Origin: Flavobacteriales bacterium
GTDB lineage: Bacteria > Bacteroidota > Bacteroidia > Flavobacteriales > UA16
Direction: 5' to 3'
DNA: 8,104 bases
NCBI GenBank assembly: GCA_030831885.1
Contig: JAURKF010000335.1
Span: 1 to 8,104, forward strand
The notes beneath the pieces were generated by a model that searched no databases, was not told where the DNA came from, and was given only the letters and a program-made list of their open reading frames with translations. Within the stretch, counting starts at the first letter, position 1; each line of letters opens with the position of its first letter. Made by a program: the position numbers and the translations under genes. This document shows positions 1 through 8,104 of this stretch, piece by piece.

Positions 1-2518
1 GACCATCGGGACCGGCCAAGCTCAGTTCGAATTCACCGGCGGGCACACGCAGCGGGTCAATCACTTTGATTTGCACAGGACCACCGCCGGGCAGATATTC
101 TGCCTCTTCGCTGTAGTAAGGCGCACTGAGAATTTCGTTTTCGGCCTTGGCCGAAAGGTTCAAGACGTTCTTGCCATTACCGGTTCCTTCAATGCGCACA
201 AGTGGCACACCATCGCCATAACCCGAGTTCACAATCGTACCTCCGTTTTCGGGAGAAACGTTGTGAGGGATGGCTTTTACTACGGGGATTTCGAGCAGCG
301 TTGCTTTGCGTGATGGCAGAAAGGGTTCATCTTGTCCGCCCAGCGTGGTGTATGAAAAATCAGCGTAGTTATTATACCCATATGCAATCACCATGAAGTA
401 GTAGGTTTTGTGATTCACCAGTTGTGGTGAACCAAGTGCAAATGCGTCGTTTGTGACGCGAAGCGAATGGAATACTCCTTCATTGGCACCCTGTACTTCG
501 AGTTGCGGAACAATTTGTCCGGTGGTCGCATCGAGTTTATAGTTGATTAGAGTGCTTACTTCATCTTGCACATCGCATTGCGCAATCATTCGGGCTTGGT
601 TGATGTCGCCTAATTCGGCCGCGGATACATTTTCATTTATTAGCTGATAAACCATGTACCCCTGGAACGTGTAGCTTCGTTCGTCGGCAGTATATGCTAC
701 GCCGTCGGGATTGAACTCAGGAATGGTTGGATCGAGCAGGTTGTATTGTTCATGGAAATTATTGCTCAAGGGATTTTCATTCGTCCATTGCAGAATGATT
801 TCGTTGGAAAGCTCGCAAACAGTAACATCAGGAGCATCGGGCCCGGAAATGAGTTCAAAACAATTGTCGAATAAAGCCTGTGCTTTGTCATCGGCTATGC
901 GCACGGCTTCCACACTTGCAAAGGGATCCCCGTCGTTGGCGCGAGCCCATACAACCCCAACGGTTATGTTGTTGTAGTCGCCGGGTTCAAGGGTGAATGG
1001 CCCTGCACTTTGCATGAATCGCCTATCGGCGGGCGGATTGCCACTGCTTATTTCGGTCCATGGTTCAGTATTTACTCCACCTGTTCCGAAGTGGTACGGA
1101 TCAGTGTCACCGGGAAACATGTAATCGGCAGGAATGGAAAGATTCGCTCCGCTTCCTTCGGTGAGCGCGTTTCCACCATAGGCCATTCGTTGGCCGTTTT
1201 TCCAATATCCTCGCAAGTAGTTGTAATAATGTGCCGGCACCTGGGGTGGCCCGTTAGTCGCCAATCCAGAGTTATGATAAAGGAATTTACGCATTCCGAA
1301 TCTTTCGTTGTCGACTACACCATCGCCATAACCAATACCGATTCCTTTGTAAGGAATACCTTTTTGATCGATGGCTTGTTGTATATCAGTTGTAAGAGGA
1401 TTGTCAATTTCATCTTCATCCTGATAAGGGCCTTCGAAAAAATCGACACCCACAGCGGGTGGGTTCTCTCCATATCCTAACGAGAGCCCTGTTGGATCAT
1501 CGAAAGCATCGCCATTATAGCCATATCCTAATCCTCGTTGCACATCGCATCCTACATAGTCATCTACGTGTCCTCCGATGTCGAGATCAATCCAGGTTCC
1601 GAAGTAGGTGTCTTGCAACGTCTGCGACCCTTGATTGATGAGTACATAGTTGTAGAATGTCATGTTGTTTACTTCATCGTTCGTGTTAAAGGCAAATGCC
1701 TGCGCACGAATTTCCATACCAATAGCCTGACCGCCCGTTTCGGAGTGAATGTTGCCTTTGTCGTTGAACACCCAGTAATACGTTTGATCACCATATAGTG
1801 GAACAATATCTTCACGCTTGCGGGTTTTGCAGTCGATTTCGCGTGTGAGATCATACCAGGGATAATCGCCGCTTTCGGGGTCATACGAACCATTGTTGTT
1901 ATAATCGTAAAATGGTGCGATGTAATAATCTTGACCTAAAGCAACATTTCCATGTGCCGGATAATCGTTGAAATAAGATGGCATACTATAACCATCCGGA
2001 AATAATTTGGCCATATCGCAATTGGGATCCTGCAAACAGTCGTGATATTGACGGTGCAAGGCTGCATCGCTTCTTAGAGTAATAGAAAACTTATCCCACT
2101 CCAGGCACGTGTTGGCATTTACTTCGGCTGCGCCGTCATTGGTAAGAGGTCCCGGCCAGTAGTCGTTGCCGCTATATCTGTATAACAAGGCTGCAAGTTT
2201 GAGTTGCTGGTCGGGCGAAACGCCTCCCAGCCATAAGGATCCCGCGAACATCACACCTGCGTCGCCATTTTTGGGAGCGAAATAGTGGGATCGGCCGTTT
2301 GCTCGGTCTTGCCAGAGTGAGCCACCGGTTTCAATGAGCGCGTCAATGTTGTTCCACTCCAGATCACGAAGCGCGGTAGCAGGAGCGCAGGCAGCTGCTC
2401 TGCTCTCGGCGATTGGTTTAACCCCGAGGTGATCGAGTTTGCCGGAAAGCAACAGAGCTTCCTGAGCGTGTGTGTATTCAACAAATACGCACAAAACAAG
2501 TAGCCAAAGCCATTTCAT
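1..2518 (-). CDS. Large secreted protein of Bacteroidota T9SS-substrate type, fibronectin-III-like region; 3' end cut by window
   Basis: The frame is open from the ATG at 2518 to the window edge, giving the first 839 residues of a longer protein. Residues 1-18 form a signal peptide (Lys2, a hydrophobic stretch, then THA before Gln19). The region after it resembles long secreted proteins common in Bacteroidota: a LIETGGSLWQD segment (61-71), FAGSLWLGG (91-99), SGNDYWPGPL (116-125), FNDKGNIHSETGG (251-263) and VDDYVGCD (318-325). Residues 205-216 (Asp205, Asn207, Asn209, Ser211, Asp213) read as an EF-hand-like calcium loop. About 557-725 looks like a fibronectin type III fold, starting PDAPDVTVCELSNEIILQW and ending YYFMVIAYGYNNY. 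Proteins of this type normally end in a T9SS type A sorting domain and are exported to the cell surface or medium; that end is not visible here, so T9SS export is inference. The function is unknown. AAGGA lies directly against the ATG, too close for a normal ribosome site. The gene follows the helicase gene by 41 bp on the same strand. Confidence 0.85.
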   Translation of the reverse strand, partial: MKWLWLLVLCVFVEYTHAQEALLLSGKLDHLGVKPIAESRAAACAPATALRDLEWNNIDALIETGGSLWQDRANGRSHYFAPKNGDAGVMFAGSLWLGGVSPDQQLKLAALLYRYSGNDYWPGPLTNDGAAEVNANTCLEWDKFSITLRSDAALHRQYHDCLQDPNCDMAKLFPDGYSMPSYFNDYPAHGNVALGQDYYIAPFYDYNNNGSYDPESGDYPWYDLTREIDCKTRKREDIVPLYGDQTYYWVFNDKGNIHSETGGQAIGMEIRAQAFAFNTNDEVNNMTFYNYVLINQGSQTLQDTYFGTWIDLDIGGHVDDYVGCDVQRGLGYGYNGDAFDDPTGLSLGYGENPPAVGVDFFEGPYQDEDEIDNPLTTDIQQAIDQKGIPYKGIGIGYGDGVVDNERFGMRKFLYHNSGLATNGPPQVPAHYYNYLRGYWKNGQRMAYGGNALTEGSGANLSIPADYMFPGDTDPYHFGTGGVNTEPWTEISSGNPPADRRFMQSAGPFTLEPGDYNNITVGVVWARANDGDPFASVEAVRIADDKAQALFDNCFELISGPDAPDVTVCELSNEIILQWTNENPLSNNFHEQYNLLDPTIPEFNPDGVAYTADERSYTFQGYMVYQLINENVSAAELGDINQARMIAQCDVQDEVSTLINYKLDATTGQIVPQLEVQGANEGVFHSLRVTNDAFALGSPQLVNHKTYYFMVIAYGYNNYADFSYTTLGGQDEPFLPSRKATLLEIPVVKAIPHNVSPENGGTIVNSGYGDGVPLVRIEGTGNGKNVLNLSAKAENEILSAPYYSEEAEYLPGGGPVQIKVIDPLRVPAGEFELSLAGPDG

Positions 2519-2530
2519 TCCTTCTTAATT

Positions 2531-2564
2531 TAAAGCTACATTACGAAAAAAAACGTTGCTCAAA
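2531..2564 (-). promoter_or_regulatory. Possible Bacteroidota-type promoter for the secreted-protein gene
   Basis: On the minus strand, TAGCTTTA (2538-2531) matches the Bacteroidota -7 box TAnnTTTG at all but the last of its fixed bases. A TTTG (2564-2561), overlapping the end of the helicase gene, lies 22 bases upstream, within the usual -33/-7 spacing. The predicted leader would be only a few bases long, and the spacer holds a run of eight T. This is a weak call; the gene could equally be transcribed from upstream. Confidence 0.25.
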
Positions 2565-5500
2565 CCGAAATAATGGACGGCCCCTCAGTGTACAATACGT
2601 AACCCTCCACCGGTTTGCTATAAATACGCTGAAGTTCTTGTTTGTATGTTTCCACCTGTCCGATATGCTTATCAGATTGTTTTCCTGATTTATAATCAAC
2701 CACCACCACACGATCTTGGAGTACGATTACACGATCGGGTCGAAGGGTGTGGTCTTTTTGTGATATCAGCTCTCGCTCGCAATGCAGCGCCTCATAGTCG
2801 GAAAACCATGCTGTGGTTTGTTCATTGCTTAACAAGCTATGAATGTCTTCGGTTAGTTTTTTTCGTTGAATGTGCGCATCTTTTTTTCCACTCAGCACGC
2901 GTTCGATAGCGTCGGTGGCATGCTCCGATTTTTTAAGCAGGGATAAACATTCATGGAGAAGTTTACCATAAGCAATTTCCGGTGTGTCACGCTGCAATCC
3001 GGAAAGCATTTTTAGTTTCGGGTACAACATCTCTCTGCCGGTGAGCATAGGTGTCATGGCCGGCGCTGATGAGTTTTTTGTTGTTGTGTATTTTTCTTGC
3101 CTGCCAATTTCCATGATGCCGGTATCGGAATATTCAGGGAAGCACTGCATAAGGGTTTGATCAAGCGTCCTATTGAATAGCGTACCCCCTTTTTCTTGAA
3201 TGAAGTACAAGCGTGTTGCTGCTCTGGTGCATGCTACATATAGGTTGTTGATTTCATCCAGGAAACGCATACGGCTTTCTTGCGATAATTCCTGGGTTAG
3301 ATTGTCATCCGATTCTTCATCAGCCTCATTCAATGACTTGGCCCCCATTTGAACATATGCGGTAGGCAAATCGCACATATGTTCAGGAATGGCAATCCAC
3401 AAAGAGCTTGGTTTTGCTTTTTCCATGAAATGAGGAATGATTACAGCCGGGAATTCAAGTCCTTTTGATTTGTGAACGGTCATGATGTTCACGGCATCGG
3501 GGTGATTAACCGCCGCAGAGCTTTGCTTGTTGCGATGTTCTTTCCACCATTCAATGAATCGATGAAGATCTAGGTTTTTTCCGATGCAATGTTGCTTAAT
3601 TAATTCGAGCAAGTATTCTACTCCGCTATCGACAGGCAGTTGAAGTGATCGCATCAACGAGATTGCCATATGAAATACATTTTCTCCCTTCATGACATGT
3701 GATAAATCACCGTAGATGGGCAGAAGAAATGCATTTAAATCAATTGGCGGAGAGTTCTTGTCGGCGAGATGGAGTGAAATGAAATCAGGAAGTATTACAC
3801 GATTGTCGAATGATGCAAGCGATTGCATCATATCGAAGGCCGCATATTTGTTTTTGGGATAAAGATAAAATTCGAAATAGCCCATTATAACCCGCACTCC
3901 TACTGAATGAATAAGCAGAGCGTTTTCAGCTGTAGTGAATGGTATTTTGTGCTCATTGAGCATGGCTGTACATTTATTTCCATCATTGTGCGATCGCACT
4001 AGAATAGTGATGTCGCCATACCGAAATCCGCTATTTATGCATTCCCCAATGGCTTGTATTACCGAATCTTTCATGAAGGTAGCGTAGCCCGCATCTTCTT
4101 TCTTCAACAGATGGTTTCCGATAAGACGCACGAATCCCGTATCGTTTGAATTTTTAATTTGATAAACCTCCTTGTAAACTTGCTCGCACCCCGGAAGCTC
4201 GGCAGCGAGTGGCGGGAATATGGTGTTGTTGAATTCAATAACAGATTCACTGCTGCGAAAATTGATTTGAAGCGCCTCCTCCTGAATGTTCTCATGCAAG
4301 GTTTTTTGTGCAAGTGGCATCTGAAAGTCTTTTGGTAGATTGGGCAGCATCGTGAATTGTTCGACATTCGCCGAGCGCCAGCGATAGATGCTCTGCTTGG
4401 CATCGCCCACGATTAAATTTTCGTGACCTTCAGCGAGGCAGTTTTGGATCAATGGTATGAGGTTCATCCACTGCATTTTGGAAGTGTCTTGAAACTCATC
4501 GACAAGAATGTGCTTGTAACGAGCACCGATGCGTTCAAAGATGAATGGTGCGTCGTTACTTTGGATGATGCTGTTGATCATACGATGAAAATCGGCGAGA
4601 AGGACCATGTTCTCTTCTGCTCTTATTTCATTGGCATATTCGTTCATGCGATCGATTAATCCCATCTTGAAAAGATTGTCTTTAATCTTTCGCATCAATT
4701 GAAGTTGTTGCAAGTTTTCTTCTGCAAGAAATGGTACCAATTCGTCCACCAGCGTGTCAAGCTCAATTCTAATCGGCTCAAGCTGTGTTCGCAATTCGGA
4801 TTTTGCATCTTTATGCAACCATTGTCTATTTTCAAAAAATGCATTCAGATTATTGCCGGGTTTGTCGAATCGGTCTTCGTTTATATATTTCGACAAACCC
4901 GATATGTATCCACTCTTTTTATTGGGTATATCGTCTTTGGTAACTCCTGCCTTCGTGATTAGTTCGAGAATTTTTGTTATCAGGATTCTTATCTGATTTT
5001 CTTGTTGTCGAACCTTCGCAGTAAGAATTTCATATTCTTGTTGAATTTTAGGAAGATCAATAGCCTCTAGCTTCTTTAACGGCTCTTGACCATCCTCCTG
5101 AAACAGCACGCGCGCCATCTGAATCAGTTCTTCCCTTGGATTCCATGCCTTTCCTTCCTCTAGCAGATTGGTGCTATAGCGATGGAGATATTGAGTAAGC
5201 AGCGCATCTTGGCCAATGAATTCGAGCATGCGATCGACGGCTTTTTCTTGCAAATTCTCCGGCTTAGTTTCGATATTGAAATCGTTGTTGAGCTGAAGAT
5301 CTTTTGCAAATGAACGCACCAGCCTGTGCGTAAAACTATCGATGGTTAGAATGCTTAGTTTGCTATAGTTGTGAAGCATGTGACTGTAGGTAGCCTCAGC
5401 ACGAGCCTTCAATTCTTGGGGTGAAATGTTCAGCTGCTTCAGAAGCATCTCCACGAAATCCTTGTTTCCGTTTCCTTCCGAAATCTCGCGCAGATACTTC

Positions 5501-5679
5501 AATGCGCGTTGCTTCATTTCATTGGCAGCTGCATTTGTAAACGTAATGGCAAGGATGTGTTTATAGTAGGAGGGATTTTCAAAACGCAATGCATACGAAA
5601 GGAAGTGAAATACCAGCTGAAATGTTTTACCACTGCCGGCACTTGCTTTTATAACCGTAAACTTTCGGGTTGATTCCAT
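2560..5679 (-). CDS. UvrD/RecB (AddA-like) superfamily 1 helicase with C-terminal PD-(D/E)XK nuclease domain
   Basis: A 1039-residue ATP-dependent DNA helicase-nuclease, predicted to act in the cytoplasm on double-strand ends in recombinational repair. Helicase motifs appear in order: Walker A ASAGSGKT (12-19), motif Ia TFTNAAANEMK (46-56), TIDSF (112-116), Walker B LVDEFQDTS (392-400), motif III GDAKQSIYRWR (425-435), motif IV NFRSS (473-477), motif V TVHKSKGLEFP (734-744) and motif VI VACTRA (815-820). The C-terminus carries a RecB-type nuclease: GKLLHE (His909), Asp982 in PDRV, Asp995-Tyr-Lys997, Gln1008 and Tyr1012. All expected catalytic positions are present, so the nuclease should be active. 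I chose the ATG at 5679, which gives MESTRKF close to Walker A as usual in the family; an in-frame TTG at 5706 would add nine residues of no obvious value. Motif Ia has Ala where most relatives have Lys after TFTN. An AddB-like partner is expected by analogy but is not in the window. The length is normal for Bacteroidota homologues. Confidence 0.93.
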   Translation of the reverse strand: MESTRKFTVIKASAGSGKTFQLVFHFLSYALRFENPSYYKHILAITFTNAAANEMKQRALKYLREISEGNGNKDFVEMLLKQLNISPQELKARAEATYSHMLHNYSKLSILTIDSFTHRLVRSFAKDLQLNNDFNIETKPENLQEKAVDRMLEFIGQDALLTQYLHRYSTNLLEEGKAWNPREELIQMARVLFQEDGQEPLKKLEAIDLPKIQQEYEILTAKVRQQENQIRILITKILELITKAGVTKDDIPNKKSGYISGLSKYINEDRFDKPGNNLNAFFENRQWLHKDAKSELRTQLEPIRIELDTLVDELVPFLAEENLQQLQLMRKIKDNLFKMGLIDRMNEYANEIRAEENMVLLADFHRMINSIIQSNDAPFIFERIGARYKHILVDEFQDTSKMQWMNLIPLIQNCLAEGHENLIVGDAKQSIYRWRSANVEQFTMLPNLPKDFQMPLAQKTLHENIQEEALQINFRSSESVIEFNNTIFPPLAAELPGCEQVYKEVYQIKNSNDTGFVRLIGNHLLKKEDAGYATFMKDSVIQAIGECINSGFRYGDITILVRSHNDGNKCTAMLNEHKIPFTTAENALLIHSVGVRVIMGYFEFYLYPKNKYAAFDMMQSLASFDNRVILPDFISLHLADKNSPPIDLNAFLLPIYGDLSHVMKGENVFHMAISLMRSLQLPVDSGVEYLLELIKQHCIGKNLDLHRFIEWWKEHRNKQSSAAVNHPDAVNIMTVHKSKGLEFPAVIIPHFMEKAKPSSLWIAIPEHMCDLPTAYVQMGAKSLNEADEESDDNLTQELSQESRMRFLDEINNLYVACTRAATRLYFIQEKGGTLFNRTLDQTLMQCFPEYSDTGIMEIGRQEKYTTTKNSSAPAMTPMLTGREMLYPKLKMLSGLQRDTPEIAYGKLLHECLSLLKKSEHATDAIERVLSGKKDAHIQRKKLTEDIHSLLSNEQTTAWFSDYEALHCERELISQKDHTLRPDRVIVLQDRVVVVDYKSGKQSDKHIGQVETYKQELQRIYSKPVEGYVLYTEGPSIISV
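4857..4901. repeat. Perfect 13-bp inverted repeat (potential hairpin) inside the helicase gene
   Basis: CGGGTTTGTCGAA at 4857-4869 is the exact reverse complement of TTCGACAAACCCG at 4889-4901, with a 19-base spacer. The arms encode residues about 260-275 of the helicase, in the variable stretch between the TIDSF motif and Walker B. The mRNA could form a stable 13-bp stem. The flanking bases on both sides do not pair, so the repeat is bounded exactly. Its role, if any, is unknown. Confidence 0.8.
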
Positions 5680-5755
5680 AGGAGAGGTGATAGGATAGAT
5701 GCACAATATCGGTCAATTTTAATTTTTTTCGCGTACTGTTCAGGTTTCTGTCGGT

Positions 5756-5786: not shown

Positions 5787-6554
5787 ATGAAGTCGATACA
5801 TTATTTTATTATTTCTGTTTTTTCGATTGTTTTTATGCAGGCATGCAAGGACGAAACAGACAATCCTCCGATGACCCAGCCTACCTCCGCTAAAATCTCT
5901 TTTGATGCGCGATGGGCAGGACAGCCTTTTCAAATGCAACAGGTGTATTTGGATGATTTCGGTAACCGCTTGCGTGCCGACAAATTCATGAATTACATTT
6001 CGTTGATCAAGCTTGTGAAAGACGATGGAACAGAAGTGTTGGTGAAGGATTTTATGTTGCTCGATTTTTTTGAAGCCAATTCAGTAACAGCTGAGGTTCC
6101 TGCTGGAAAGTACGTTGCGCTGAAATTCGGTATCGGTGTCCCTCGCGATAACAACAAAGATCAGGATCCTGCGCAGTATGCGAGCTCAAGCCCGCTAAGC
6201 GTAGCAGGCTCTCAGGGTATGTTTTGGACATGGAATACCGGATATATCTTCGCTAAATTCGAAGGGAAATGCGATACCACCGGCACAGAAGGCACCGAGC
6301 TTCTTACGCCTGTAGCTATTCATACAGGCGATGATTTCAGTTATCGTGAATTCACTTCCCCTTCCTTTAACGTTGATCTAAACGGAAACACGCATACGTT
6401 TTCTGTGCACGTAAACGTGGATCAAATATTCTCACCGATAAACGGAAACGACGTGAACATTGCGTTGGATGCAATAACCCATGGCGGCACCAATCCGGAT
6501 TTGACCAATAACTTCATGGATAATTATCTCGCGGCCTTGAGCCTTGAGCCATGA
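5787..6554 (+). CDS. MbnP-family lipoprotein, putative copper-binding partner of di-heme enzymes
   Basis: A 255-residue exported lipoprotein: a hydrophobic leader, then FMQAC with Cys20 as the lipidation site. Cys20 is followed by Lys-Asp-Glu, which resembles the Bacteroidota signal that sends lipoproteins to the cell surface. The mature part (about 34-255) reads as a single MbnP-like beta domain: KISFDARWAG near the start, MNYISLIKL (68-76), VPAGKYVALKFGIGVPRDNN (104-123), MFWTWNTGYIFAKFEG (145-160), AIHTGDD (177-183) and a C-terminal LDAITHGG (227-234). The Trp147-x-Trp149 pair before GY is the hallmark stretch. In methanotrophs, MbnP carries a copper site that includes kynurenine made from Trp by the di-heme enzyme MbnH; whether that happens here is inference. 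It is the first gene of the operon, and its stop overlaps the next start (ATGA). Cys162 is the only cysteine in the mature domain besides the lipid-bearing Cys20. The start is the only ATG that gives the signal peptide. Confidence 0.85.
   Translation: MKSIHYFIISVFSIVFMQACKDETDNPPMTQPTSAKISFDARWAGQPFQMQQVYLDDFGNRLRADKFMNYISLIKLVKDDGTEVLVKDFMLLDFFEANSVTAEVPAGKYVALKFGIGVPRDNNKDQDPAQYASSSPLSVAGSQGMFWTWNTGYIFAKFEGKCDTTGTEGTELLTPVAIHTGDDFSYREFTSPSFNVDLNGNTHTFSVHVNVDQIFSPINGNDVNIALDAITHGGTNPDLTNNFMDNYLAALSLEP
6551..6554 (+). other. ATGA start/stop overlap: MbnP-family gene to first di-heme gene
   Basis: The ATG of the di-heme gene shares bases with the TGA stop of the MbnP-family gene. This arrangement is typical of translational coupling and implies one transcript with linked production of the two proteins. 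No Shine-Dalgarno sequence is visible ahead of it. Confidence 0.8.
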
Positions 6555-7573
6555 TCCGCGCGTGCGTTATACTTGCAATTATTCTTGCCGGCTGCTCCAA
6601 CAATAGCCCAATTCAGCTGAAGGATGAGCCTTTTGATGTTCGTGTTCCGGTGGGTTTTCCGCCCGTTGAGTTTCCGGCTGATAATGAGCCCACGAAGTTG
6701 CGAGTGGAAATGGGTAGGAGACTTTTTTACGACAATAGATTATCATCTGACGAAACGATGAACTGCGGTTCCTGCCATGTGCTCAGCGCGGCATTTACAG
6801 ATGGTAGAACAACGAGCGAAGGATTGCATGGTATTTCCGGAAAGCGCAATGCACCAACATTGGTGAATCTTGCGTGGATGAAAAGATTCATGATGGAAGG
6901 CGGCGTTCCTACTCTCGAAACACAAGCCCTGGCGCCTTTGCACGATAGTGCTGAGATGGGTTCCAATATGATGCGGGCAGTAGAAAAACTAAATCGGGAC
7001 CCCTACATGATTGCGCTTGGTCGCGCTGCCTATGGTCGCGATAGCATCGATCCATTTATAATAACAAGAGCTCTGGCCTGTTTTCAGCGCACACTCATGT
7101 CGGGCGATAGCAGGTACGATCGATATGTGCGACTTGATAAAAAAGACCAGATGAATGCAAGTGAAATACGCGGCATGGACTTGTTTTTTTCGGCCAGGAC
7201 CCAATGCAGCTCCTGCCATAGCGGAGTTTTTTTTACCGACATGGATTATCACAATATCGCTTTGCAAGAAGAATATTTAGATGAGGGCAAGGCACGAGCA
7301 ACCCATCTTGATAAGGACGTAGGCCGATTTAAAACACCTACGCTTCGCAACATTCAGCTTACCGCACCATATATGCATGATGGTAGCATGCGCTCCCTTG
7401 AAGAGGTTATCTCGTTTTACAATAAAGGTGGAAACGCTCATCGCAACAAGGATCGAAGGATAAACACATTGGAATTGACGGTAGAGGAGCAGAATGACTT
7501 AATTGCTTTTCTGACAACACTCACTGATTGGAATTTTGTTCAGAATACAGACTTCTTACCTTTGATGCAATGA
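6551..7573 (+). CDS. Di-heme cytochrome c peroxidase / MauG / MbnH-like lipoprotein, first paralogue (lacks the FWDG Trp)
   Basis: A 340-residue lipoprotein (lipobox LAGC, Cys15) with two c-type heme sites: CGSCH (72-76) and CSSCH (219-223). Other family marks are LFYDNRLSSDETMNCGSC (58-75), the AEMG glutamate Glu135 that is catalytic in bacterial CCP and MauG, and KTPTLRNIQLTAPYMHDGS (261-279), whose Met275 is the usual axial ligand of the high-potential heme. The length fits the family. Enzymes of this family reduce peroxide or, as in MauG and MbnH, oxidise residues of a partner protein. The adjacent MbnP gene favours the second role, but this is inference. Unusually, the FWDG stretch reads FMMEGG (113-118), so Met115 stands where relatives carry a Trp between the two hemes. 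Heme attachment requires export to the periplasmic side of a membrane. The gene is coupled by ATGA overlaps to both neighbours. Confidence 0.9.
   Translation: MIRACVILAIILAGCSNNSPIQLKDEPFDVRVPVGFPPVEFPADNEPTKLRVEMGRRLFYDNRLSSDETMNCGSCHVLSAAFTDGRTTSEGLHGISGKRNAPTLVNLAWMKRFMMEGGVPTLETQALAPLHDSAEMGSNMMRAVEKLNRDPYMIALGRAAYGRDSIDPFIITRALACFQRTLMSGDSRYDRYVRLDKKDQMNASEIRGMDLFFSARTQCSSCHSGVFFTDMDYHNIALQEEYLDEGKARATHLDKDVGRFKTPTLRNIQLTAPYMHDGSMRSLEEVISFYNKGGNAHRNKDRRINTLELTVEEQNDLIAFLTTLTDWNFVQNTDFLPLMQ
7570..7573 (+). other. ATGA start/stop overlap between the two di-heme genes
   Basis: The TGA stop of the first di-heme gene overlaps the first of two adjacent in-frame ATG codons (7570 and 7573) of the second. 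Either start keeps an overlap with the stop. This suggests coupled translation along one operon mRNA. Confidence 0.75.
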
Positions 7574-8104
7574 TGAACAAGGTTCTCCATATCGCAATTT
7601 GTATAGTCATTGCGCTAGCTTCATGCAAGCCATGCGATCCGGAAATTACGCCCCAAGCAGAATTCAAGGCAACACCTTACAACTTAGTGATTCCGCCTCT
7701 ATTTCCGCCCATGGATATTCCTGCCGACAACCCGCTAACGGTAGAAGGTGTTCAATTGGGGCGATACCTTTTTTGGGAAAAAAAATTAAGTGCTGATGGC
7801 ACGCAGAGCTGCGGCTCCTGTCACTTGCCGGAACACGGATTTTCAGACCCCAATCAATTTAGTGTGGGGATTACCGGGGCTGTGGGTAATCGTCAATCGA
7901 TGGCACTTGTAAATCTCGGATGGGCGTACAATTATTTTTGGGATGGTCGCGCTGCAACATTAGAAGATCAGGTCATCGAGCCTATCATTAACCCTATTGA
8001 AATGAATAATACATGGGATGCCGCATTAACAGCGTTGCGCGCAGATCCAATCTATCCGCCATTATTCAAGGCTGCTTATGGCAGCGATGAAATCACGCAA
8101 GACA
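7570..8104 (+). CDS. Di-heme cytochrome c peroxidase / MauG / MbnH-like lipoprotein, second paralogue; 3' end cut by window
   Basis: The frame is open to the window end, giving the first 178 residues. It is a lipoprotein (lipobox LASC, Cys19). The mature part aligns with the preceding gene: PPMDIPADN (46-54) against PPVEFPADN, LGRYLFWEKKLSADGTQSC (63-81), then the first heme site CGSCH (81-85). The inter-heme region is canonical, YFWDGRAATLEDQ (122-134), followed by NPIEMNN with the catalytic-type Glu144. The second heme motif and the Met/Tyr ligand region would lie past the window end. Trp69 replaces the Tyr usual in the LFYD motif. An A8 run at 7778-7785 is read in frame and does not break the gene. 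The tandem arrangement suggests an old duplication. A role in oxidising the MbnP-like partner, or as a plain peroxidase, cannot be separated from this fragment. Confidence 0.88.
   Translation, partial: MMNKVLHIAICIVIALASCKPCDPEITPQAEFKATPYNLVIPPLFPPMDIPADNPLTVEGVQLGRYLFWEKKLSADGTQSCGSCHLPEHGFSDPNQFSVGITGAVGNRQSMALVNLGWAYNYFWDGRAATLEDQVIEPIINPIEMNNTWDAALTALRADPIYPPLFKAAYGSDEITQD

What the first reader, a model, noticed from the sequence alone, without database searches (positions are those of the whole stretch)
5787..8104. MbnP-family lipoprotein coupled to two tandem di-heme MauG/MbnH-like lipoproteins: candidate protein-modifying copper system
The sequence shows an MbnP-like protein followed by two di-heme peroxidase-like proteins, all lipoproteins and all joined by ATGA overlaps. 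In methanotrophs the MbnP/MbnH pair converts a Trp to kynurenine to form a copper site. No methanobactin precursor or maturation gene is visible here, so the module probably serves copper uptake, storage or redox chemistry unrelated to methanobactin. Two enzymes for one substrate is the unusual part.
Basis: partly seen in the sequence, partly recalled or inferred. Interest (0 to 1): 0.7.

Follow-up and report, generated by a model that had tools for sequence, protein, structure and literature searches.

The report
Copper-lipoprotein operon with paired heme enzymes
A bacterial lipoprotein that probably binds copper is encoded next to two different heme enzymes that may chemically remodel it, and related bacteria keep the two enzymes together even though one of them usually lacks a residue that this enzyme type normally carries.

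Summary
The window encodes an MbnP lipoprotein (5787-6554), a di-heme MbnH-like lipoprotein (H1, 6551-7573) and the N-terminal half of a second (H2, from 7570, cut by the window end), with overlapping genes. The order is conserved: 50 of 176 loci that I assembled carry H1-H2 side by side. H2 is the common partner; 100 of the 176 have H2 without H1, mostly at the same chromosomal site. H1 is a separate old clade (99/95 support). New point: H2 keeps the inter-heme Trp (MauG W93) and Tyr294 in 149 of 149, while H1 has lost that Trp in 48 of 49, yet keeps both heme motifs and the peroxide-pocket residues and is under purifying selection. Two MbnP types occur with the H1-H2 pair: type 2 (window) and type 1 (L056, L244, L246-L250). 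So the enzymes stay together whichever substrate is kept at the locus. I read this as an MbnP/MbnH protein-modifying module with a second, Trp-less, BthA-like enzyme. Copper and kynurenine are inferred from homology only; among the neighbours I annotated, none is a copper gene.

The parts
5787..6554 (+). MbnP-family lipoprotein (255 aa; type 2). Lipid Cys20 followed by KDETD; WxW = W147 (codon 6225), W149 (codon 6231); candidate copper ligands H179 (codon 6321), H232 (codon 6480)
6551..7573 (+). H1: Trp-less MbnH/MauG-like di-heme lipoprotein (340 aa). CxxCH at codons 6764 and 7205; Met115 (codon 6893) at the MauG W93 place; Q125, P129, E135; Tyr290 (codon 7418) at the MauG Y294 place
   Evidence: PF03150 2.4e-50; TIGR04039 2.8e-81, below cut-off; best PDB fold 6e1c MbnH TMq 0.86; residues
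7570..8104 (+). H2: Trp-bearing MbnH/MauG-like lipoprotein, N-terminal part only (window ends inside the gene). First CxxCH codon 7810; Trp124 (codon 7939) at the MauG W93 place
   Evidence: PF03150 4.4e-39; full-length orthologues in L001-L008 have two CxxCH and the Tyr; MauG alignment of the L001 orthologue

Best explanation
This is a non-methanobactin MbnP/MbnH protein-modification operon. MbnP is a lipoprotein, perhaps on the outer surface, in which a Trp of the WxW motif is oxidised (probably to kynurenine) to complete a copper site with His179 and His232. H2 is the ordinary MbnH-type enzyme: a di-heme protein with inter-heme Trp, Tyr-ligated heme and the Gln/Pro/Glu peroxide pocket, doing the long-range Trp oxidation with H2O2. 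H1 is a second, Trp-less (BthA-like) di-heme enzyme that works as a unit with H2 on whichever MbnP is present: most likely it carries out a separate oxidation step or handles the peroxide or electrons for it. Shown: families, folds, gene order, residue rule, clades, purifying selection. Inferred: modification, copper, localisation, and the H1-H2 partnership.
For: Pfam, PDB and fold matches to MbnP and MbnH. W147 and H179 in 159 of 159 single MbnPs and H232 in 136 of 136 H2-linked ones, like the Kyn + 2 His site of MopE* and CorA (passages). MauG W93, Q103, P107, E113, Y294 align with residues of the L001 H2; over 149 H2, W 149, Q 145, P 149, E 149, Y 149. H1 keeps two CxxCH and Q/P/E in 49 of 49, and dN/dS was 0.056-0.121 in the nine of 14 pairs that could be computed. 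H1 and H2 adjacent on one strand in 50 of 50. H1-H2 kept with type-2 MbnP (40 loci placed) and with type-1 MbnP (L056, L244, L246-L250); genome G002 has one of each (L002, L056). BthA shows that a Trp-less Tyr-ligated di-heme enzyme can form bis-Fe(IV) (PMC6405878, passages).
Against: No copper gene among the neighbours annotated, though not all were annotated. The 2:2 loci and L239, P-H(W)-P'-H(R), fit one enzyme per substrate equally well. No extra Trp is conserved in MbnPs that have H1, so no second target site is visible. H1 has lost Tyr294 in 17 of 49 (F 14, K 2, I 1), which makes MauG-like chemistry by H1 doubtful. H1-type proteins also occur alone with an MbnP (L242; the sister lineage in Chlorobiota L009/L010), so H1 does not always need H2. 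In the protein database set H232 is kept in 108 of 118 MbnPs only (N in 7). The window is cut before the H2 C-terminus.
Confidence: 0.45

Rival explanations
1. One enzyme per substrate: H1 is the modifier of type-1 MbnP and H2 of type-2 MbnP. The window lineage lost type-1 MbnP, and H1 has moved to another client elsewhere or is a slowly decaying leftover.
For: Six loci hold two MbnPs with H1-H2 (L122, L133, L139, L140, L195, L199). L239 has P-H(W)-P'-H(R) with each enzyme behind its own MbnP, and L242 is a type-1 MbnP with a Trp-less enzyme only. Type-1 MbnPs form one clade (94/95, 93% of bootstraps). 40 of 47 tandem genomes list more than one MbnP.
Against: H1 stays without an adjacent type-1 MbnP in the 40 loci other than the two-MbnP ones, and is under purifying selection. 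The mirror case, type-1 MbnP with both enzymes and no type-2 MbnP at that locus, also exists (L056, L244, L246-L250). Seven tandem genomes list one MbnP in all (incompleteness is possible, but G052's lies on a 3.48-Mb contig).
Confidence: 0.25
2. H1 is an ordinary H2O2-consuming peroxidase (BthA-like) that protects MbnP and H2 from excess peroxide or sets the peroxide dose; it does not touch MbnP.
For: Inter-heme Trp replaced in 48 of 49 H1, as in BthA, a good H2O2 peroxidase with Ser at that place (PMC6405878, passages). The window H1 scores lower against MauG (73.9 bits, best MauG chain) than the L001 H2 does (125 bits).
Against: No electron donor gene was recognised among the ORFs scanned. 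A Trp-less enzyme occurs as sole partner of an MbnP (L242; L009/L010), where a pure scavenger would leave MbnP without a modifier.
Confidence: 0.2
3. The module has nothing to do with copper or kynurenine: MbnP-like and di-heme proteins form a surface redox or peroxide-response system.
For: No copper gene among the recurrent neighbours annotated; identity to the solved MbnP is only 18% over 203 residues; MbnP, H1 and the L001 H2 fall below NCBIfam cut-offs.
Against: Conserved WxW, H179 and H232, the same fold, and regular adjacency to a MauG-type enzyme.
Confidence: 0.1

Closest known systems
MbnP/MbnH pair (Methylosinus trichosporium; PDB 7l6g, 6e1c; TIGR04052/TIGR04039)
   Different: No methanobactin genes among the ORFs scanned, only two Cys, NCBIfam cut-offs not reached, and a second Trp-less di-heme gene between mbnP and the mbnH-like gene.
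MopE/SACCP and CorA/CorB (methanotrophs)
   Same: Surface copper protein with Kyn + 2 His, co-transcribed with a di-heme cytochrome c peroxidase-like protein (PMC3912023, PMC3423442, passages).
   Different: One di-heme partner described; [quoted passage not shown]
MauG (TTQ biosynthesis; PDB 3l4m)
   Same: The L001 H2 has the W93, Q103, P107, E113, Y294 equivalents.
   Different: Different substrate; H1 lacks W93 and sometimes Y294; no mau genes among the ORFs scanned.
BthA (Burkholderia; PDB 6nx0)
   Same: Inter-heme Trp replaced, Tyr-ligated six-coordinate heme, distal pocket residues kept (PMC6405878, passages): as in 32 of 49 H1.
   Different: BthA sits beside a putative phosphatase, and its relative BthB is on the other chromosome; H1 sits beside MbnP and H2 and has Met, Ser, Ala, Arg, Gly or Lys at the Trp place.

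Membership tests
MbnP (PF20243 / TIGR04052) | Pfam MbnP domain over gathering score | tested here: met
   126.8 bits, cut-off 27
MbnP (PF20243 / TIGR04052) | NCBIfam TIGR04052 (MbnP_like_WxW) cut-off | tested here: not met
   52.8 bits, cut-off 140
MbnP (PF20243 / TIGR04052) | WxW motif | tested here: met
   W147, W149 in the window; both kept in 42 of 42 tandem, 85 of 94 P-H2 and 23 of 23 P-Hs MbnPs
MbnP (PF20243 / TIGR04052) | Four-Cys motif (from the name of the 7l6g molecule) | tested here: not met
   window MbnP has two Cys, C20 (lipid) and C162 (translation; name)
MbnP (PF20243 / TIGR04052) | MbnP fold | tested here: met
MbnP (PF20243 / TIGR04052) | Copper bound, Trp turned to kynurenine | not testable with these tools
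   needs protein
MbnH (TIGR04039) | NCBIfam cut-off | tested here: not met
   H1 273.2, L001 H2 262.1, cut-off 362.85
MbnH (TIGR04039) | Two CxxCH and MbnH fold (H1) | tested here: met
MbnH (TIGR04039) | Inter-heme Trp and Tyr ligand (as in MauG), H2 | tested here: met
   Trp in the window; Trp and Tyr in 149 of 149 H2, the window's C-terminal half not seen; 6e1c shows W and Y aligned at these places
MbnH (TIGR04039) | Inter-heme Trp, H1 | tested here: not met
   Met115 in the window; Trp in 1 of 49 H1 and 0 of 116 listed database proteins over 300 aa
BthA-type di-heme enzyme | Inter-heme Trp replaced, Tyr ligand kept (H1) | tested here: met
   window H1: M115 with Y290. Of 49 H1, 32 have this combination, 16 have lost both, 1 (L133) has Trp but Ile at the Tyr place
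BthA-type di-heme enzyme | Stable bis-Fe(IV), H2O2 turnover | not testable with these tools
   needs protein
Methanobactin operon | mbnA/B/C genes beside mbnPH | tested here: inconclusive
   the five main ORFs of the window scanned with NCBIfam give none; only 8.1 kb seen, and mbnA would be too small to notice

The most novel reading that the evidence does not exclude
H1 and H2 form an obligate two-enzyme unit, a Trp-less and a Trp-bearing di-heme enzyme, that together oxidise one copper lipoprotein (for example one making the first oxidation and the other the ring opening, or each taking one Trp of WxW). The unit accepts either of two MbnP types. This would be a division of labour inside the bCcP/MauG superfamily that I saw in no listing or passage of the papers I could search.
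Probability: 0.3. Interest if true: 0.75.

Novelty: new variant of a known kind. Interest (0 to 1): 0.52.

Why it matters
MauG-type enzymes are a model for long-range protein oxidation, and the inter-heme Trp is described as necessary for it in MauG (PMC6405878, passages). Here a Trp-less and a Trp-bearing enzyme are kept together beside one substrate gene in many genomes, which gives a natural comparison of what the Trp does. The MbnP family was found in 331 of 349 genomes drawn from this order, so whatever the module does is probably part of the normal physiology of these bacteria.

Tried and rejected
Chance or mis-called ORFs: rejected by Pfam, folds and conservation. H1 as a recent duplicate of H2: rejected; H1 is a separate clade (99/95) whose sister is the single MbnH of two Chlorobiota (100/97). 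H1 as a decaying pseudogene: not supported; dN/dS 0.056-0.121 in nine pairs (the other five saturated, and three of the nine have dS above 1), although H1 changes faster than H2 (mean pairwise identity 0.488 against 0.607 over 41 tandem loci; H2 higher in 789 of 820 pairs). A second conserved Trp in MbnP as H1 target: looked for, not found. W149 is Met or Leu in 9 of 94 P-H2 MbnPs and in none of 42 tandem ones; eight of the nine share one motif and may be one event, so I draw nothing from it. His289 as a replacement ligand when Tyr290 is Phe: 10 of 14 have His there and 4 Phe, inconclusive. A MauG W199-like Trp before the second heme motif: 6 of 49 H1, 12 of 149 H2, nothing to build on. RNA families in the window: none at gathering score. 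Plasmids: two weak Deinococcus matches.

Exceptions to the Trp rule: L133 H1 has Trp and L238 is P-H-H with Trp in both. L240 and L241 have a second Trp-bearing di-heme gene about 2.5 kb downstream; L236 and L237 are tandem di-hemes without MbnP. Of 30 phylum loci, two repeat known loci, seven are the tandems refetched, and 21 show one di-heme gene: W 17, F 2, Y 1, R 1. Some of these 21 score best with my H1 profile though they keep Trp, so that profile is not a safe label outside the order.

Sampling limits: the 176 loci (L001-L205 and the window, less 30) came from MbnP similarity, best PF20243 hits, nearly all listed H2 rows of a 349-genome draw (second hits such as G269:C17 and G317:C157 not fetched) and paralogues. 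Ten repeats and 20 short loci that were refetched were dropped. The set is not random, holds close relatives and many MAG contigs, and gives no natural frequencies; H2 presence is mostly by construction, H1 presence is not. From the MbnP comparison three short MbnPs were dropped and the 12 of two-MbnP loci kept apart; all 12 have WxW, H179 and H232. L056 and L154 were left out of the tree as long branches; L238 and L251 were left out. The lipobox finder is crude and picks a wrong Cys in some proteins, the window H2 among them.

Papers: Manesis 2021 and Kenney 2019, the key papers on MbnP and MbnH, are not held. That MbnH makes kynurenine in MbnP is recalled, not read, and those papers may already show tandem cases. 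Listings or passages in which I saw none.
Full report

CONSERVATION. One genome-contig scan with MbnP gave 21 loci; the eight closest all have MbnP, H1, H2 in this order. No whole genome is held for the window, so I used genomes of those loci as centres. MbnP (PF20243) is in 331 of 349 genomes drawn from their order (the order is not named), and an H2-like protein at E <= 1e-30 in 331 of 349. I fetched the neighbourhoods of nearly all listed H2 rows and sorted genes with profiles built from the first 21 loci. Of 176 loci, window included, 50 have H1-H2 (33 MbnP-H1-H2-Y, 10 MbnP-H1-H2, 6 with two MbnPs, 1 cut), 100 have H2 without H1 (76 MbnP-H2, 20 MbnP-H2-Y, 4 cut), and 26 have other MbnH types. 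Y is a CxxCxxCC (PF03692) protein, in 35 of 50 tandem and 21 of 100 H2-only loci. H1 and H2 lie on one strand in 50 of 50 and within 60 nt in 49 of 50. The RecB-like helicase cluster is found in 120 loci, 90 H2-only and 30 tandem, and is divergent and upstream in 119 of the 120. So these are largely the same chromosomal site with and without H1. Pfam on ten further neighbours, representatives of recurrent clusters, gave WYL, enoyl-CoA hydratase, MurB, PKD, phosphoribosyltransferase (under cut-off), a nuclease domain, no match (three), and one Nramp-like transporter just under its cut-off, whose cluster occurs in nine H2-only loci.

TWO UNEQUAL ENZYMES. In the alignment of the L001 H2 with MauG, MauG W93, Q103, P107, E113 and Y294 (chain numbering; PDB titles name Q103, P107, E113 and Y294 variants) fall on the H2 residues W (YFWDGR), Q, P, E and Y (HYN). 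The spacing W+10 = Q and W+20 = E also fits Trp98, Gln108 and Glu118 of N. gonorrhoeae BCCP (PMC10094543, passages). In the window H1 these places are M115, Q125, P129, E135 and Y290. Over the order set, H2 has W and Y in 149 of 149 and Q in 145. H1 has M 20, S 12, A 10, R 3, G 2, K 1 and W 1 at the Trp place, and Y 32, F 14, K 2, I 1 at the Tyr place, with Q, P, E and both CxxCH in 49 of 49. In a protein database search 2015 proteins match H1 at E <= 1e-60; 120 were listed. Of the 116 of them over 300 aa none has Trp there (M 95, A 8, S 6, F 5, G 1, T 1), and the Tyr place has Y 97, F 15, L 2, H 1, I 1. H1 is not decaying: NG86 dN/dS was 0.056-0.121 in nine of 14 pairs, the other five being saturated.

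TEST OUTSIDE THE ORDER SET. In a draw of 395 genomes from the phylum, 110 have an H1-like match at E <= 1e-50. Of its 30 loci, seven new ones are tandems. I refetched these with more flank, with nine further neighbourhoods chosen mostly because two matches lay close together (16 in all). Eight of the 16 hold two directly adjacent di-heme genes behind an MbnP: in seven (L244-L250) the first has Arg at the Trp place and the second has Trp; in one (L238) both have Trp. L239 is MbnP-H(Trp)-MbnP'-H(Arg), and L242 is MbnP with one Arg-type enzyme. The other six (L236, L237, L240, L241, L243, L251) are tandems without MbnP, widely spaced pairs or single genes. A careful tree of 69 di-heme proteins puts the 27 H1-type rows in one clade (99/95; 98% of bootstrap trees), with the single MbnH of two Chlorobiota (L009, L010; Ala at the Trp place) as sister (100/97).

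TWO SUBSTRATE TYPES. Six tandem loci have two MbnPs (L122, L133, L139, L140, L195, L199). All six are preceded by a gene of one cluster with an N-terminal CDxC motif (start missing in L139), and four of the six also by a small ORF with a CxGxC or CCKGxC motif (L122, L133, L140, L195). The first MbnPs of these loci group together (91); the second ones fall in the clade (96) of the ordinary H2-linked MbnPs, where the window MbnP and the other 39 single tandem MbnPs of that 87-row tree also sit. With the phylum loci added, the first MbnPs join L239's downstream MbnP, L242, L244, L246-L250 and L056 in a 15-row 'type 1' clade (95 in the quick tree; 94/95 and 93% of bootstraps; L245's MbnP was incomplete and left out). 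So H1-H2 occur with type 2 alone (window), with type 1 alone at the locus (L056, L244, L246-L250), and with both. Genome G002 carries one of each kind (L002, L056). At genome level, 7 of 47 tandem genomes list one MbnP and 40 list two to six.

MECHANISM. W147 and H179 are invariant in the 159 single MbnPs compared, and H232 in all 136 that are H2-linked, but in only 10 of 23 that are not; in the database set W147 and W149 are in 117 of 118, H179 in 118 and H232 in 108. Two His plus one Trp is what MopE* and CorA use, with the Trp as kynurenine (PMC3423442, PMC3912023, passages). The window MbnP begins C-KDE after lipidation, which contains the minimal K-(D/E)2 export signal of Capnocytophaga, although one place earlier than the optimal C-X-K-(D/E)2 (PMC5080379, passages). 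My crude scan finds this motif in 30 of 140 MbnPs, 3 of 49 H1 and 4 of 149 H2, so surface exposure of the window MbnP is plausible and not general. H2 has the MauG residues and is the common sole partner of MbnP in this order, so it is the likely Trp oxidase. H1 resembles BthA, which has Ser at the Trp place and still forms bis-Fe(IV) and turns over H2O2 (PMC6405878, passages). That both enzymes persist whichever MbnP type remains argues that they act together. It does not prove it: one enzyme per substrate explains L239, L242 and the 2:2 loci just as well.

VERDICT. The finding is real and conserved. The families are known. The tandem pair with a near-strict Trp-less/Trp-bearing split is a variant that I saw in no listing or passage of the library, and the two most relevant papers could not be opened. 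Copper, kynurenine and the job of H1 remain to be tested.

Noticed in passing
L122, L133, L139, L140, L195, L199, L137, L009, L010: A gene of about 310 aa with an N-terminal CDxC motif (weak Phenol_MetA_deg match for the L140 copy) lies beside MbnP or MbnH here; a small CxGxC ORF accompanies it in L122, L133, L137, L140, L195 and also lies beside single pairs in L011, L022-L024. Neither cluster was found at the window-type loci.
   Followed up: partly
L001 8008-8514 and equivalents: A CxxCxxCC (PF03692) gene follows H2 in 35 of 50 tandem and 21 of 100 H2-only loci; role unknown.
   Followed up: partly
window 2560-5706 (-): RecB-like helicase with a weak PD-(D/E)XK match, divergent from the module in 119 of 120 loci that hold it: a stable neighbour.
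   Followed up: partly
window 2-2518 (-): 839-aa open-ended ORF without Pfam or NCBIfam match; its cluster holds the window and L001, L002, L006, L008.
   Followed up: no
L121, L124, L125, L128-L132: MbnPs whose WxW reads RWDM or TWDM (second Trp lost), all in loci with H2 only.
   Followed up: partly
L236, L237: Tandem di-heme-family proteins without an MbnP, the first with only one CxxCH and neither with the usual Gln and Glu.
   Followed up: no
L076 5070-6326 and its cluster (nine H2-only loci): An Nramp-like transporter just under the Pfam cut-off (29.5 against 29.8 bits), the only metal-transport-like neighbour seen.
   Followed up: no
L011 7703-8194: A DUF3347 (PF11827) gene directly follows a single MbnP/MbnH pair in Mucilaginibacter.
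   Followed up: no
L001-L003, L008 records: MAGs titled Chryseobacterium gleum of 2.5-3.1 Mb share this locus with Flavobacteriales MAGs; the species label looks wrong (recalled: C. gleum genomes are much larger).
   Followed up: no
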